In this document: in pieces, positions 5,293 to 33,618 of the stretch | How positions within the stretch are numbered: the stretch's first letter is position 1 | Layout: each line of letters begins with the position of its first letter | Source: Pseudarthrobacter sp. BIM B-2242 | GTDB lineage: Bacteria; Actinomycetota; Actinomycetes; Actinomycetales; Micrococcaceae | Assembly (NCBI RefSeq): GCF_014764445.1 | Contig: NZ_CP061721.1 | Location: 2,294,001-2,358,000, forward strand | Direction: 5' to 3' | Length of the DNA: 64,000 bases | The notes under the pieces: model-generated | Database searches by the model: none | The model's input: only the letters and a program-made list of their open reading frames with translations | What the model was told of the DNA's origin: nothing | Translations under genes and position numbers: made by a program

Positions 5293-7632
5293 TTACTTCG
5301 CGGCTTGCAGCAGGCCGGCGCGGACGGTCTTGGTGGCCTTGACCAGGTTGCGCAGGGACTCTTCGGTCTCGGCGTAGCCGCGGGTCTTCAGGCCGCAGTC
5401 CGGGTTGACCCACAGCTGGCGGGACGGGACGTGCTTGACGGCGGTGGCCAGCAGTTCAGTGACTTCGGCCTCGCCCGGAACTCGGGGCGAGTGGATGTCG
5501 TAGACGCCCGGGCCGACGCCGCGGCCGAAGCCGTGGGACTCGAGGTCGTGGACAACCTCCATGCGTGAGCGTGCGGCTTCGATGGAGGTCACGTCGGCGT
5601 CGAGGCCGTCGATCGCGTCGATGATCACGCCGAACTCGGAGTAGCAGAGGTGGGTGTGGATCTGCGTGGCATCGGCAGCACCGGCGGTGGCCAGGCGGAA
5701 GGAGTCAACGGACCATTTCAGGTACGCGGCGTGATCGGCCTTGCGCAGCGGGAGGAGTTCGCGCAGGGCGGGCTCGTCCACCTGGATGACCTTGATGCCG
5801 GCTGCTTCGAGGTCGGCGATCTCGTCGCGCAGTGCCAGGCCGACCTGGTTGGCGGTCTCGCCCAGCGGCTGGTCGTCGCGGACGAAGGACCATGCCAGGA
5901 TGGTGACCGGACCGGTGAGCATGCCCTTCATGGGCTTGTTGGTCAGCGACTGGGCATACTCGGCCCATGCCACCGTGATGGGGGCACTGCGGGTGACATC
6001 GCCCCACAGGATGGACGGACGCGTGCAGCGTGAGCCATAGGACTGGACCCAGCCATGGACCGTGACGTCGAAGCCTTCGAGGTTCTCGGCGAAGTACTGG
6101 ACCATGTCGTTGCGCTCGGGCTCGCCGTGCACCAGCACGTCGTAGCCGAGCTCTTCCTGCAGCTCCACAACGCGCTTGATCTCGTCCTTCATGAGCTGCC
6201 CGTACTGCTCGTTGGTGAGGTCGCCCTTGTTGTTACGGGCACGGGCCGAACGGATTTCGGAGGTCTGCGGGAAGGAGCCGATGGTAGTGGTGGGCAGCGG
6301 CGGCAGGTGCAGGGCCTCTTCCTGGGCGGCCTCGCGGACTGCGTATTCGGAGCGGCTGAAGTCGGCGGCGGTCAGGGCCCCGGTGCGGGCGCGGACGTCG
6401 GTGCGGTACACACCGTTAGCGGCAGCACGGGCTGCGATGACGGCGGATGCCTCGTCGATGGCGGCCTTGGCCGAGGCGGGGTCTGCCAGGTAGGACGCGA
6501 GGGTCCTGACCTCAACAGCCTTCTGGTCAGCAAAGGCGAGCCAGCTGCGGAGCTCGTCGGAGAGCTGGCCCTCTTCGGTGACATCGTGCGGAACGTGCTG
6601 GGTGGACGTTGAGGTGCTCACTGCAAGCTTGCCGGCAGCAGCCTTTAGTTCATCCAGCTTGGCGGCGGAGACGGCGAGGTCGTTCCGCCAGATGTTGTGG
6701 CCGTCAACGACGCCGGCAACCAGGGTCTTGTCCCCCAGGGCAGCAAGTGCCGCTGCGGAGGGAACGGCCCCCTTGAAGGCGTCGATGTGGAGGGCATCGA
6801 TATTGGTGGCGGCCAGCGTACCGAGCTGACCGTCCAGGGCGCCGTACGGGGTGGAGACAAGGATCTGCGGGCGCGCGGCGGTAGCGGTGAGCACCTCATA
6901 AGCGCGGGCAACGGCGGCTTCAATTTCGGCGGCCGGGGTGTCCTGGTCAACTACCAGGGCGGGCTCGTCAAGCTGGATCCAGCCGGCGCCTGCAGCGGCG
7001 AGCTTTTCGAGCAGCTGCACGTAGACCGGCAGGACGTCCTCAAGGCGGGACAGCGGGGCGAATCCTGCGGGGGCGTCGTCGGACGCCTTGGAGAGCAGCA
7101 GGTAGGTGACCGGGCCAACGATGTACGGGCGGGTCTCGATGCCGTTGGCCAGGGCGAATTCGAATTCCTCCACGATGCGGTTGGAGGCCAGGGTGAACGC
7201 GGTCTCGGGGCCGATCTCCGGCACGAGGTAGTGGTAGTTGGTGTCGAACCACTTGGTCATTTCCAGCGGCTGCTGTTCCTTGGTGCCGCGGGCCAGGGTG
7301 AAGTAGCCGTCGATGTCCAGCTGGCCCTCGGCGTTGAGGAGGTTACCGAAGCGGGCCGGGACTGCGCCGAGGTGGGCAGTGGCGTCCAGCACCTGGTCGT
7401 AGTAGGAGAATGTTCCCGGTACGGCAGCGGCCTCGGTGAGGCCGAGTTCCTGCAGGCGCTTGGCGATGGTCAGCTGGATGTCCTTGGCGGCGGCGTCCAG
7501 TGCCGCTGCGTCGATGGTGCCGGCCCAATAGGCTTCGACGGCTTTCTTCAGTTCGCGGCGGCGGCCGATGCGGGGGTAGCCCAGGAGGGAAGCGGCCGGG
7601 AACGGGGTGCGGGCGGTGTTGTTTTCAGGCAT
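5293..7632 (-). CDS. metE: Cobalamin-independent methionine synthase
   Basis: 5-methyltetrahydropteroyltriglutamate-homocysteine methyltransferase, 779 residues, the normal length for MetE. It makes methionine by direct methyl transfer from methyl-folate to homocysteine. The N-terminal half begins ASLLGYPRIGRRRELKKAVE. The catalytic C-terminal half shows TTTIGSFPQT and the zinc-ligand segments IHTHLCYSEF and NPDCGLKTRGY. The start ATG has AAGGAA 6 bases upstream. It is 50 bp downstream of metF, which supplies its methyl-folate, and both lie behind the long metF leader. A GC-rich hairpin follows the stop. Confidence 0.98.
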   Translation of the reverse strand: MPENNTARTPFPAASLLGYPRIGRRRELKKAVEAYWAGTIDAAALDAAAKDIQLTIAKRLQELGLTEAAAVPGTFSYYDQVLDATAHLGAVPARFGNLLNAEGQLDIDGYFTLARGTKEQQPLEMTKWFDTNYHYLVPEIGPETAFTLASNRIVEEFEFALANGIETRPYIVGPVTYLLLSKASDDAPAGFAPLSRLEDVLPVYVQLLEKLAAAGAGWIQLDEPALVVDQDTPAAEIEAAVARAYEVLTATAARPQILVSTPYGALDGQLGTLAATNIDALHIDAFKGAVPSAAALAALGDKTLVAGVVDGHNIWRNDLAVSAAKLDELKAAAGKLAVSTSTSTQHVPHDVTEEGQLSDELRSWLAFADQKAVEVRTLASYLADPASAKAAIDEASAVIAARAAANGVYRTDVRARTGALTAADFSRSEYAVREAAQEEALHLPPLPTTTIGSFPQTSEIRSARARNNKGDLTNEQYGQLMKDEIKRVVELQEELGYDVLVHGEPERNDMVQYFAENLEGFDVTVHGWVQSYGSRCTRPSILWGDVTRSAPITVAWAEYAQSLTNKPMKGMLTGPVTILAWSFVRDDQPLGETANQVGLALRDEIADLEAAGIKVIQVDEPALRELLPLRKADHAAYLKWSVDSFRLATAGAADATQIHTHLCYSEFGVIIDAIDGLDADVTSIEAARSRMEVVHDLESHGFGRGVGPGVYDIHSPRVPGEAEVTELLATAVKHVPSRQLWVNPDCGLKTRGYAETEESLRNLVKATKTVRAGLLQAAK

Positions 7633-7682: not shown

Positions 7683-8666
7683 TCAGCTGGCGAGCCGGGC
7701 GTGCCTTGTGGCGTTGGAGCGGACAGCGGCGCTGCGGCGGCCAACTGAACGGACGTGGCGCGGAAGTGCCAGTTTGTCCAGCACCTCCAGTGCGCTCACG
7801 TGTTCATTGAAGGTGTAGAGGTGGATGCCCGGCGCGCCGGAGTCCAGCGCCGCGTTGGCCAGGTCAACGGTGGCGCGGACGCCGATCCGGAGCCGCTCGG
7901 CCTCAGTGTCGGCCCCGGCCAGGCGGGCCAGGAGCTCCGGTGCCGGCTGGACGCCTGCCAGCTCGCCGAGGCGGGTGACGCGGCGCAGGCTGGTCAGCGG
8001 CATAACACCCGGGATGATGGGGATGGTGACACCCGCACGACGGGCCCTCGTGATGAGGTCCGCGTACTGCGCGGTGTCGAAATAGACCTGCGTGATGGCG
8101 AAGTCCGCGCCGGAGCGCTGCTTTGCGAGCAGCACCTCAACGTCATGCGCCTCGCTGGGTGACTCCGGATGCCTGGTGGGGTAGGCGGCCACTCCCACGG
8201 CGATCTTGCCCGCGCACAGCAGCGCTGAACGCCGCTGCTCAACCCGGCGGATGAGTTCGATCAAATCCTGGGCATACCGCAACGAACCGGCAACCGGCGG
8301 TTCGCCGTCCTGGGGACGGTCGCCGCGGAGCGCCAGGATGCCGCGCACCCCGGTGTCCAGCAGGTCCCCGATGATTTCGGCCAGCTCGTCCGGCGTGTTG
8401 CCCACACAGGTCAGGTGGGCGAGCGGCCGGAGCGTGGTTTCCAGCACGAGCCGGTGGATGAGTTCGACGGCGGTGTCCCGGTTCGAACCGCTGGCACCAT
8501 ACGTGACGGCGACATAGTCCGGCTCGGTGGCCTCGAGTTCCCGGATGGTGGTCCAGAGGGACTCTGCGGCCGCCGGAGAACGTGGCGGGAAGAGTTCATA
8601 GGAGAGCGCCACGGGGGCCGTCTCGGTCAGGTTTGGATGTGTTTCTATAAGGCTTGGCGGTGACAT
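7683..8666 (-). CDS. metF: Methylenetetrahydrofolate reductase
   Basis: 327-residue flavin TIM-barrel enzyme that reduces 5,10-methylene-THF to 5-methyl-THF, the methyl donor for MetE. Diagnostic segments are SYELFPPRSP near the N-terminus, YVAVTYGASGS, LRGDRP and DFAITQVYFD. The frame stays open 147 bases further upstream, but that extension is unlike a protein of this genome and overlaps a structured leader. The ATG at 8666 has AAGGA about 6 bases upstream and yields the family length. Its ribosome site is perfectly complementary to a 10-base stretch inside the leader, which points to translational control. metE follows after 50 bp. Confidence 0.95.
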   Translation of the reverse strand: MSPPSLIETHPNLTETAPVALSYELFPPRSPAAAESLWTTIRELEATEPDYVAVTYGASGSNRDTAVELIHRLVLETTLRPLAHLTCVGNTPDELAEIIGDLLDTGVRGILALRGDRPQDGEPPVAGSLRYAQDLIELIRRVEQRRSALLCAGKIAVGVAAYPTRHPESPSEAHDVEVLLAKQRSGADFAITQVYFDTAQYADLITRARRAGVTIPIIPGVMPLTSLRRVTRLGELAGVQPAPELLARLAGADTEAERLRIGVRATVDLANAALDSGAPGIHLYTFNEHVSALEVLDKLALPRHVRSVGRRSAAVRSNATRHARLAS

Positions 8667-8885
8667 TTGCGTCCTTGGCTTTGTACCATTGACGGCTACC
8701 GGCCAGCAGATGTGGCGGTGGTGCCGCAATGAATTGAGTTTGGGGAACACGGAAGAACTCCACAAGGACGCAGCCGCGACTGTTACGCCTGGAATGAAGT
8801 TGTCCGTGAGCAAATGTCAGGCCCACATGGGGGCACCCACACCCTCCATAGCGGAGGATCGCTGACACGTTACCTCGGTAACTTG
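8667..8885 (-). promoter_or_regulatory. Structured 5' leader of metF-metE with anti-Shine-Dalgarno (candidate riboswitch)
   Basis: About 215 nt of untranslated RNA. A closing stem (TGTCAG/CTGACA, plus positions 8862-8867 with 8815-8820, plus a G.U pair) encloses a CCTCC/GGAGG hairpin (8853-8857 with 8843-8847) and a further GC-rich arm. Downstream, minus-strand TGCGTCCTTG (8772-8763) is perfectly complementary to CAAGGACGCA (8677-8668), which contains the metF ribosome site. A GCGG-CCGC hairpin lies within the loop. I do not recognise the SAM-I, SAM-IV, SAH or cobalamin consensus. The pairing is seen; the regulatory role is inferred. Confidence 0.6.
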
Positions 8886-8891
8886 TATAGA

Positions 8892-8920
8892 ACTCTAGGA
8901 TCCCAAGGGACGCCGTTCAA
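8892..8920 (-). promoter_or_regulatory. Promoter of metF-metE
   Basis: TTGAAC (-35, 8915-8920) and TAGAGT (-10, 8892-8897) with a 17-base spacer, read on the minus strand. It predicts a start near 8885. The remainder of the gap up to 8983 shows nothing else recognisable. Confidence 0.55.
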
Positions 8921-31875: not shown

Positions 31876-33480
31876 TCAGGCATGCAGCCGCGGCGCGTCG
31901 AAGAACTCCACTTCGAACCGGCTTGAGTGCTTGAAGGCCTGAACCATGGCAGCCCGCTCGTCCCCGGAGGCCTTTCGTCCGGCGTCGTCAACCAAGGCGA
32001 TCGCGTCCCGCGTGGCCTGCGCGAAATCCTCGTCCGCGTACGTCCGCAGCCATTCGGCATAAGGGTGCTCCGCCGGAGCGCCTGCCGCAAGGAACCGGGC
32101 GTGGAGTGCCTTGCCCGCCTCGGCGTACAGCCAGAAACACGGCAGCAGGGCCGCCACCGCAACTCCGTAGCTGCCGGAGGCTGGGGCGGCCAGCAGATGG
32201 TCCACATAGGACTTGGTGACCGGGCCCAGGACGTGCTCCACGGTGCGGGTGCTGAGCCAGTTGCGGTGCAGTTCGGATTCGACGTCAAGGCATTGCTGGG
32301 CAGACCTGGCCCAGAACAGCTGCGCGGCTTCTGTCGGCGCCAGCGCGCTGGCGCGGGCAAGAACCCGTGAATAGCCGTTGAGGTAGATGGCATCCTGGGC
32401 GAGGTAGTAGGCGAACTGTTCCTCTGCCAGCGAGCCGGCCGTCAGGTCGCGGATGAATTCCAGCCCGTAGATAGCCTCCAGGTAAGGGGCCGCCGTCCGC
32501 TGCAGGAGTGCAGCGAATTCCCCGGCAGCGGGAGGCTGCTGTACATGGTGGAAGTGGTGGACCGGGCCGTTGCCGCCGCCGACCCCCAGTTGGCCGGATG
32601 CCCGCAGCGCGCCGGCAAGCCACGGCTTCACCAGCAGCAGGGACGCCTCCCAATCCCCCAGCCGGGCCTGTGCAGTTGCCATGGCCGAGGACAGCGAGCA
32701 GCCCGTGCCATGACTGTTGCGCGTGGCGATCCTGTCTCCCGTCACTTCCACAACCGGCCGGGAAAGCAGTCCCCCGGCATTGACCAGGGCATCAGGGCAC
32801 GTGTCGCCGTCGAGATGGCCTCCCTTAACCAGGACCGTGGCGCCGGTAGCCGCGGCCAACCGTTTTCCCTGCTCCAGCGCCTCCGCCCAGTCCCGGGCCT
32901 GGGGCTCCCCTGCCAGGATGGCGAGCTCCGCAAGGTTTGGTGTAATCAGGTCCGCAAGCGGCAGCAGGGCCCGCATGGCCGTCTCGGCCGGCTCCTGCAG
33001 CAGCCGGTCTCCACTGGTTGCCACCATCACCGGATCGAGGACCACGACGGCGGGACGTACCTTTTCCAGCCAGCTGCGGACCGCATCGATCACCTCCGCG
33101 TTGCCCAGCATGCCGATCTTGACTGCATCGATGGTGATGTCGTCGCTGATGGCGTCAAGCTGCTGGCGCAGGAACGCAGCGGGGGGAACGTGGACTGCCT
33201 GGACGCCGAGTGTGTTTTGAACCGTCAAAGCGGTGATGGCTGCCATGCCGTATCCGCCCATGGCGGCAATGCTTTTGAGGTCAGCCTGGATCCCGGCTCC
33301 CCCGGACGGATCCGAGCCGGCAATGGACAACACCCGCGGGGTATCAGTCAGAACATCCGCTGCGGCCGATGGCGCAAAGGCGGTGCCGGCGGCCGGGGCT
33401 GCTGGTCCCGGGGCTGTCAGTGGCGGCAGGGCCGCTGGAAGATCGGGGGTTGCGGGAGGAAGGACATAAGTCGAAGCCAA
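31876..33480 (-). CDS. thiD: Bifunctional HMP/HMP-P kinase and thiaminase II (ThiD-TenA fusion)
   Basis: 534-residue fusion for thiamine synthesis and salvage. After a 45-residue proline/alanine-rich lead, the ThiD kinase (residues about 48-305: VLSIAGSDPSGGAGIQADLK, DPVMVATSGDRLL, SHGTGCSLSSA) phosphorylates hydroxymethylpyrimidine. The TenA domain (about 325-530) has the catalytic cysteine in ALLPCFWLYAE and salvages pyrimidine from degraded thiamine. The start is a TTG: AAGGGA at the 3' edge of the TPP riboswitch lies 7 bases upstream, so ligand binding can hide the ribosome site. It is inserted between rne and rplU. Confidence 0.95.
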   Translation of the reverse strand: MASTYVLPPATPDLPAALPPLTAPGPAAPAAGTAFAPSAAADVLTDTPRVLSIAGSDPSGGAGIQADLKSIAAMGGYGMAAITALTVQNTLGVQAVHVPPAAFLRQQLDAISDDITIDAVKIGMLGNAEVIDAVRSWLEKVRPAVVVLDPVMVATSGDRLLQEPAETAMRALLPLADLITPNLAELAILAGEPQARDWAEALEQGKRLAAATGATVLVKGGHLDGDTCPDALVNAGGLLSRPVVEVTGDRIATRNSHGTGCSLSSAMATAQARLGDWEASLLLVKPWLAGALRASGQLGVGGGNGPVHHFHHVQQPPAAGEFAALLQRTAAPYLEAIYGLEFIRDLTAGSLAEEQFAYYLAQDAIYLNGYSRVLARASALAPTEAAQLFWARSAQQCLDVESELHRNWLSTRTVEHVLGPVTKSYVDHLLAAPASGSYGVAVAALLPCFWLYAEAGKALHARFLAAGAPAEHPYAEWLRTYADEDFAQATRDAIALVDDAGRKASGDERAAMVQAFKHSSRFEVEFFDAPRLHA

Positions 33481-33486
33481 GGAGAC

Positions 33487-33562
33487 ATCCCTTCGCCGGT
33501 GCTAACCGGACAGGTTCTACGGGTCTGGATCTCAGCCGGCTTTCTGCCGGCACCCCGTGTCA
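33487..33562 (-). promoter_or_regulatory. TPP riboswitch (THI element)
   Basis: Minus-strand core matches the THI box: GGGGTGCC, GGCTGAGATC, ACCCGTAGAACCTG, then CCGGTTAGCACCGGCGAAGGGA. The last segment contains the AAGGGA that also serves as ribosome site for the thiD-tenA TTG start, so control is probably at translation initiation. Confidence 0.95.
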
Positions 33563-33618
33563 GTCACCCAGCCTAGCCTTTCTTTGGTGCCGCTGCCCGA
33601 AGATGAAGCCGGGACGCA

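What the first reader, a model, noticed from the sequence alone, without database searches (positions are those of the whole stretch)
8667..8920. metF-metE leader: closed multi-branched fold plus a 10-base anti-Shine-Dalgarno, with no riboswitch class I recognise
Seen: a TTGAAC-17-TAGAGT promoter predicts a leader of about 215 nt. Its 5' part is enclosed by TGTCAG/CTGACA (8862-8867 with 8815-8820) around a CCTCC/GGAGG hairpin and a GC-rich arm. Its 3' part has minus-strand TGCGTCCTTG (8772-8763), perfectly complementary to CAAGGACGCA (8677-8668), which holds the metF ribosome site. A 10-base match is rare by chance in 215 nt. Known: SAM, SAH and cobalamin riboswitches control such genes, but I cannot fit their consensus. 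Inference: a translational riboswitch or other RNA switch for methyl-group metabolism.
Basis: partly seen in the sequence, partly recalled or inferred. Interest (0 to 1): 0.72.

Follow-up and report, generated by a model that had tools for sequence, protein, structure and literature searches.

The report
New RNA switch before methionine genes
The RNA in front of two methionine-making genes of this soil bacterium carries a strongly conserved folded element, shared with many relatives and matching no RNA family in the library searched, that looks like a switch controlling translation of the genes, probably by sensing a methionine-cycle metabolite.

Summary
In detail: promoter, ~219-nt leader and stems are as described, and Rfam 15 has no match. 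The core (8882-8810, minus strand) is conserved far beyond the genus: 143 of 395 family genomes, one match each, 11 of 32 genera; in 58 of 58 true hits of the first family search metF follows. P0 and P2 covary; P1 and a G/C-rich core are invariant. The conserved partner is the strand ending P1, CUGACAUUUGC, which pairs with the metF start region GCAAAUGUC; it covaries, and in one subclade its partner has moved to the ribosome site. Of 20 motif-less metF loci examined, 15 carry a SAM or SAM-IV riboswitch there; of 20 motif-bearing loci, none. Best reading: a translational riboswitch class not in Rfam, for the methionine cycle; SAM is the leading ligand guess, SAH next. Ligand binding and polarity are inferred, not shown.

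The parts
8892..8920 (-). promoter: -35 TTGAAC (8920-8915), 17-base spacer, -10 TAGAGT (8897-8892); transcript expected to begin near 8885 (inference)
   Evidence: sequence; TTGnnn-17/18-TAnnnT upstream in 183 of 187 motif-bearing loci
8869..8882 (-). P0 hairpin GTTAC (8882-8878) / GTAAC (8873-8869)
   Evidence: 4 of 5 pairs show changes on both sides, 86.4 % of cells paired on A3; some rows (L111 type) have P0 shifted in that alignment; not seen by eye in L160-L162
8816..8866 (-). P1 GTCAG (8866-8862) / CTGAC (8820-8816), closing stem of the aptamer-like core; extendable to 8868-8862/8820-8814 in most rows
   Evidence: invariant in all 50 distinct rows of A3, so without covariation
8841..8859 (-). 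P2 hairpin ATCCTCC (8859-8853) / GGAGGGT (8847-8841), loop variable in relatives
   Evidence: 6 of 7 pairs change on both sides, 95.1 % of cells paired; stretch between GTCAGCGA and GTGGGT 14 to 65 nt among 157 leaders
8821..8840 (-). conserved core GUGGGUGCCCCCAUGUGGGC with hairpin P3; GCCC:GGGC and GUGGG:CCCAU pairings both fit
   Evidence: many invariant columns; the two alternative helices keep 99.5 % and 98.8 % of cells paired, no two-sided change
8810..8818 (-). switching strand GACATTTGC: 3' end of P1 plus linker (ATTTGC, 8815-8810)
   Evidence: pairs with metF start region; covaries
8748..8808 (-).
   Evidence: a helix of at least 4 bp with p>=0.5 begins within 7 nt of the linker end in 147 of 157 leaders folded
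8661..8677 (-). ribosome site CAAGGA and start region GCAAATGTCA (8670-8661), partner of the switching strand
   Evidence: free-ensemble pairing with the linker 0.93-1.00 in the 16 leaders folded
7683..8666 (-). metF, methylenetetrahydrofolate reductase
   Evidence: best NCBIfam match TIGR00676, E 4.5e-74, 249 bits, below its curated cut-off of 293.7
5293..7632 (-). metE, cobalamin-independent methionine synthase, downstream in the same direction
   Evidence: TIGR01371 988 bits, above cut-off; metE matched after metF in 56 of 58 family loci, many loci holding only its first part

Best explanation
A cis-acting translational switch, most likely a metabolite-binding riboswitch of a class not in Rfam, dedicated to metF-metE of Micrococcaceae. 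The aptamer-like core is P0-P1-P2-P3 (8882-8816). Its output is the strand CUGACAUUUGC: in the calculated ligand-free fold its GACAUUUGC pairs with GCAAAUGUC around the metF start codon and blocks initiation; when the core closes P1 (GUCAG:CUGAC) part of that strand is taken away and the start region is partly released. Shown: conservation, covariation of P0 and P2, covariation and relocation of the linker:start pairing, competition of P1 with it in calculated folds of most members. Inferred: that a small molecule binds the core; that it belongs to the methionine cycle (SAM about 0.45, SAH about 0.2, homocysteine, methionine or a C1-folate together about 0.3); the polarity (ON upon P1 closure about 0.55, lowered from 0.6 on rechecking).
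For: 143 of 395 family genomes in 11 of 32 genera, one match each at E<=0.001; metF downstream in 58 of 58 true hits (the 59th, L170, is a false hit). 30 columns invariant over 51 selected rows, with MetF identity down to 57 %. Covariation: 10 of 21 pairs with two-sided changes, 95.2 % of cells paired against 26.0-48.5 % for slid partners. Linker:start: of 136 unique leaders 119 have GACATTTGC/GCAAATGTC, 6 a G-U variant, 4 TTTGT with matching ACAAATGTC (2) or ACGAATGTC (2); in a g31 subclade TTCGTAC(G) matches (C)GTACGAA over the ribosome site. Own linker with own start region binds better than permuted partners over 12 representatives I chose (mean -12.7 against -10.7 kcal/mol, 0.0004 of 20000 permutations as low). 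Linker:start 0.93-1.00 in the free ensembles of 16 leaders; forcing P1 costs 3.9 kcal/mol here (3.2-16.4 over 18 leaders) and lowers start-region pairing from 0.98-1.00 to 0.31-0.81. SAM-class riboswitches sit there in 15 of 20 motif-less metF loci and in 0 of 20 motif-bearing loci.
Against: P1 is invariant, so its pairing has no covariation support; P3 is unresolved. With P1 forced, the remaining six-pair linker:start helix persists at 0.36-0.87 in 5 of 18 leaders (L123, L128, L139, L152, L162), and in the six g31-subclade leaders folded the linker:ribosome-site helix coexists with P1, so simple competition does not explain all members and polarity is open. In one search the own start region is the best partner in only 3 of 12 rows, since most partners are alike. 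Pairing exceptions: L150 weak, L148 and L158 one mismatch each. Start codons were picked with a preference for ATGTC, GTGTC or ATGCC, which favours the count. Two of the five covariation measures were reached by 39-42 of 500 shuffles. The motif goes with one MetF lineage and the SAM riboswitch with another, so whole operons were exchanged and the ligand inference is weaker than for an in-place swap. One kind of operon only, so gene context cannot separate SAM, SAH, homocysteine and folates. No binding or expression data.
Confidence: 0.75

Rival explanations
1. An ON switch for S-adenosylhomocysteine (or homocysteine): ligand closes P1, frees the start codon and turns metF-metE on to recycle homocysteine.
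For: Calculated default fold is OFF and P1 competes with the OFF helix; in Proteobacteria the core SAH-riboswitch regulon is ahcY and metF (PMC4239095, passages).
Against: The elements at this position in other Micrococcaceae metF loci are SAM and SAM-IV riboswitches, which repress (recalled). The only copy in the own genome precedes metF, not ahcY.
Confidence: 0.2
2. OFF switch by stacking: ligand-closed P1 stacks on AUUUGC:GCAAAU and stabilises the block of the start site, as SAM repression would need.
For: In the g31 subclade the pairing lies outside P1 and persists when P1 is forced, as does the six-pair helix in 5 of 18 other leaders; SAM riboswitches occupy the site elsewhere.
Against: In 119 of 136 leaders the complementarity includes GUC opposite the GAC of P1; where the partner moved, 3 of 6 subclade leaders have ATGCC instead of ATGTC, against L148 alone among the other leaders, which suggests that the overlap with P1 is selected.
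Confidence: 0.3
3. The leader is read by a protein or small RNA rather than by a metabolite.
For: Not excluded by sequence; no ligand data; no partner was sought.
Against: About 30 invariant positions in a closed multi-stem core with variable loop length is typical of aptamers (recalled).
Confidence: 0.15
4. A translated three-codon upstream ORF inside the core, (A/G)UG-NGG-GYC-UGA, controls access to the linker by ribosome occupancy.
For: ATG (134) or GTG (22) with in-frame TGA in 156 of 157 unique leaders; the exception L140 (ATC) precedes a metF match with two stops that begins at residue 73 (G288).
Against: Codons 2 and 3 are not conserved as amino acids (W/R, A/V); no ribosome site seen by eye at the usual distance; the purine-U is also explained by pairing GUGGG:CCCRU.
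Confidence: 0.07
5. A DNA-level operator, or chance conservation among close relatives.
For: Very high identity within the genus.
Against: Covarying stems, loop length variation and persistence at 57-60 % MetF identity while flanks diverge.
Confidence: 0.03

Closest known systems
SAM-I (RF00162) and SAM-IV (RF00634) riboswitches
   Same: same position before metF (usually metF-metE) in other Micrococcaceae; SAM-IV also elsewhere in the same genome
   Different: no covariance-model match
SAH riboswitch (RF01057)
   Same: metF is in its core regulon in Proteobacteria (PMC4239095, passages)
   Different: no Rfam match; own-genome copy is not before ahcY
SAM/SAH riboswitch (RF01727)
   Same: lineage-restricted class tied to one met gene (Rhodobacterales, metK; PMC2864571, passages)
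   Different: no Rfam match; a pseudoknot like its own was not tested for here
SAM-VI riboswitch
   Same: actinobacterial and translational (recalled; PMC6914780 seen in a search listing only)
   Different: no Rfam match; lies before metK (recalled)

Membership tests
SAM-I / SAM-IV riboswitch | covariance model match at gathering score | tested here: not met
   none in the window or in 20 motif-bearing loci; the same kind of search finds them in 15 of 20 motif-less loci
any Rfam 15 family | covariance model match | tested here: not met
   E<=10, one match, 12.4 bits; E<=5 on six relatives, one unrelated 18.9-bit match
SAH riboswitch | RF01057 match | tested here: not met
riboswitch (as a kind) | conserved structure with covariation in a 5' leader | tested here: met
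   covariation in P0 and P2 only
riboswitch (as a kind) | mutually exclusive folds that expose or hide the start site | tested here: inconclusive
   P1 and the full linker:start helix exclude each other in calculated folds, but a shorter linker helix persists with P1 in 5 of 18 leaders and in the six g31-subclade leaders
riboswitch (as a kind) | direct ligand binding and ligand-dependent expression | not testable with these tools
   needs in-line probing and reporter assays

The most novel reading that the evidence does not exclude
A new riboswitch class, found so far only in Micrococcaceae, that turns metF-metE on in response to a substrate-side signal for which I recall no natural riboswitch (homocysteine, 5,10-methylene-THF or 5-methyl-THF), using the 3' strand of its closing stem as an anti-start-codon strand.
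Probability: 0.15. Interest if true: 0.9.

Novelty: new variant of a known kind. Interest (0 to 1): 0.72.

Why it matters
It would add a riboswitch class to methionine metabolism in a large family that otherwise has SAM-I or SAM-IV at the same place. Because both leader types drive the same gene pair in sister lineages, in genus g8 side by side, the case allows a direct test of whether unrelated RNAs were recruited for one ligand or whether the operon's input signal changed. The start-codon pairing strand, with natural covariants and a relocated partner, is a ready set of constructs for the mechanism.

Tried and rejected
Cobalamin as ligand: 22 of 28 motif-bearing genomes examined have no MetH match at E<=1e-50 (the window's genome does), so repression of metE by B12 where MetH substitutes does not explain the motif there. 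Wider spread: R1 in 396 phylum genomes found only two genomes of the own genus; R2 in 297 order genomes gave marginal hits outside the family and two inside (L182, L184), none with a metF or metE match within the fetched 1.5 kb flanks, of which L177, L179, L180 and L183 are one conserved coding stretch by eye. These large searches use stricter filters and may miss divergent copies. L170 (22 bits with R1) was dropped as a false hit. Plasmids: no match. Leader peptide: the open frame upstream of metF differs in length between relatives; no peptide comparison was made. P3: two pairings counted, a third (CCC:GGG) considered by eye, none decided. One search's printout was cut; the motif count is. 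One search's tally of the RUG triplet was off by one base; one search is the corrected count. Literature: eight searches gave listings in which I saw no report of this motif; passages were read in PMC2864571, PMC4239095 and PMC3766115. The 2017 survey of 224 candidate RNAs is not held and was not checked; most subscription papers are not in the library.

Full report
WHAT IS THERE. On the minus strand a TTGAAC-17-TAGAGT promoter precedes a leader of about 219 nt (start near 8885 is inferred), then metF (8666-7683) and metE (7632-5293). MetF rests on TIGR00676 at 249 bits, below that model's cut-off of 293.7; MetE is above its cut-off. Rfam 15 finds four tRNAs and a TPP riboswitch (33471-33567) in the window, and around the leader only one 12.4-bit match at E<=10.

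CONSERVATION. MetF was found in 128 of 150 genus genomes. From 80 named Pseudarthrobacter/Arthrobacter records, 30 loci of the genus sample and two of the own genome, a pattern GTGTCAG...CTGACATTTGC was found in 111 of 112 loci; the one without, L002, is a distant second MetF-like match. An alignment of 35 leaders that I selected has 44 invariant positions. Covariance model R1 matched 59 of 197 family genomes, one of them (L170) falsely; R2 matched 143 of 395, one match each, in 11 of 32 genera. The own genome has one copy. Of the 58 true loci all have metF after the element and 56 a metE match after metF; L134 (whose locus ends about 400 bases after metF) and L168 do not. MetF at E<=1e-30 was found in 111 of the same 197 genomes, so about half of the metF-bearing genomes carry the element.

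STRUCTURE. On a 51-row alignment (50 distinct; selected, and fitted to R1, so leaning towards its P1, P2 and P3) the four helices P0, P1, P2 and P3 have 95.2 % of cells paired; 10 of 21 pairs show two-sided changes, all in P0 and P2; slid partners give 26.0-48.5 %. Shuffles reach the observed number of two-sided pairs in 42 of 500 and of pair types in 39 of 500, and never reach the cells paired, two-sided cells or covariation score. P1, GUCAG:CUGAC, never varies. P3 could be GCCC:GGGY or GUGGG:CCCRU; both are kept in nearly all rows without two-sided change. 30 columns are invariant. A further hairpin P4 begins within 7 nt of the linker in 147 of 157 leaders.

THE SWITCHING STRAND. The 3' side of P1 plus linker, CUGACAUUUGC, is complementary to the metF start region GCAAAUGUC. 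Of 136 unique leaders, 119 have the nine perfect pairs, 6 a G-U variant, 2 have CTGACATTTGT with ACAAATGTC and 2 with ACGAATGTC; seven single types (L148, L150, L156, L158, L163, L168, L169 by comparison) deviate. The script preferred ATGTC, GTGTC or ATGCC when choosing the start codon. Four g8 leaders (L164-L167) are not in that count; they have CAAATGTC, eight pairs. In a g31 subclade the linker reads ATTCGTAC and its complement GTACGAA sits upstream, overlapping the ribosome site GAAGAGG (L168, L169; L222, L224, L225, L228); 3 of these 6 start ATGCC and 3 ATGTC. Among the g31 metF copies that lack the element, L186 and L187 show altered versions of that complement by eye, L189 none. For 12 representatives chosen by me, own linker-start duplexes are on average better than permuted ones (0.0004 of 20000), but the own start region is the best partner in only 3 of 12 rows because most partners are alike.

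FOLDS. In the 16 leaders scored (four of the 20 asked for were absent from the set) the free ensemble has linker:start at 0.93-1.00 and P1 near 0. In 18 leaders, forcing P1 costs 3.2 to 16.4 kcal/mol (3.9 here) and reduces start-region pairing from 0.98-1.00 to 0.31-0.81; SD pairing changes in either direction (here 0.34 to 0.81), and the six-pair linker:start helix persists at 0.36-0.87 in five. This predicts a blocked start when P1 is open and only partial release when it closes. In the six g31-subclade leaders the linker helix stands at about 0.55-1.0 with P1 forced, higher than free in L222 and L228, whereas in L223, L229 and L164 it falls to 0.2 or less. ViennaRNA ignores tertiary contacts and ligand.

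TGCGTCC with GGACGCA is intact in 52 of 96 leaders counted as genus; 35 have TGCGCCC (34 with GGACGCA, a mismatch); 3 have TGCGTCC with an altered partner, 6 neither; 0 of 40 leaders counted as other genera has either form (the genus label is my script's, by locus number, and named records were not checked against taxonomy). It lies inside P4.

WHAT REPLACES IT. I fetched 20 metF loci from 19 of the 53 family genomes that have MetF but no motif hit. Thirteen carry RF00162 and two RF00634 at gathering score in the metF leader; L198 and L199 show the same core by eye, that of L199 scoring 42.4 bits, below cut-off; L186, L187 and L189 have metF close behind another open frame by eye and no element. 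None of 20 motif-bearing loci chosen by me has a SAM-class hit. All 40 genomes tested have at least one SAM-IV over cut-off, the own genome three; RF00162 is over cut-off in 26 of 40, not in the own genome (27.7 bits). The own genome's SAM-IV elements precede genes with Pfam class-V aminotransferase, alpha/beta hydrolase (a homoserine acetyltransferase by my reading) and rhodanese plus Cys/Met-metabolism PLP enzyme domains. A MetF tree of 52 chosen rows puts 15 SAM-class loci in one supported group apart from the motif-bearing rows, L202 and L203 far off, and L186, L187, L189 among motif-bearing g31 rows; three label changes. Genus g8 contains both types. So operons were exchanged rather than leaders swapped in place.

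LIGAND. SAM is favoured by this functional equivalence; SAH by the ON-type logic and by metF being in the SAH-riboswitch core regulon of Proteobacteria (PMC4239095, passages). B12 is disfavoured: 6 of 28 motif-bearing genomes examined have MetH, the window's genome among them. Lineage-restricted SAM-sensing RNAs have precedent (PMC2864571, passages; PMC3766115, passages).

VERDICT. A real regulatory RNA, widespread in the family and not in Rfam; a translational riboswitch is the best explanation, with ligand and polarity open.

Noticed in passing
window 8828-8817 (-) and relatives: The core contains (A/G)TG-NGG-GYC-TGA, a possible three-codon reading frame, in 156 of 157 unique leaders; the exception L140 has ATC.
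   Followed up: partly
L140 (G288): The metF match next to a divergent core (ACCTCCATCTGGG) has two stops inside and begins at residue 73 of the query, so gene and leader may be decaying together.
   Followed up: no
L187 and L188 (G261): One genome has two metF genes, one grouping with motif-bearing g31 rows but without the element, one with a SAM riboswitch leader.
   Followed up: partly
L176 (G797), locus centre: A 31-bit R2 match in another family of the order, with no metF in the fetched flanks; probably chance, a distant relative not excluded.
   Followed up: partly
window 33471-33567 (-): TPP riboswitch by Rfam.
   Followed up: no
leaders 3' of P4, e.g. window 8753-8741 (-): A pyrimidine-rich stretch (TTCC...CCCC) follows P4 in many relatives and could be a general anti-Shine-Dalgarno; seen by eye only.
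   Followed up: no
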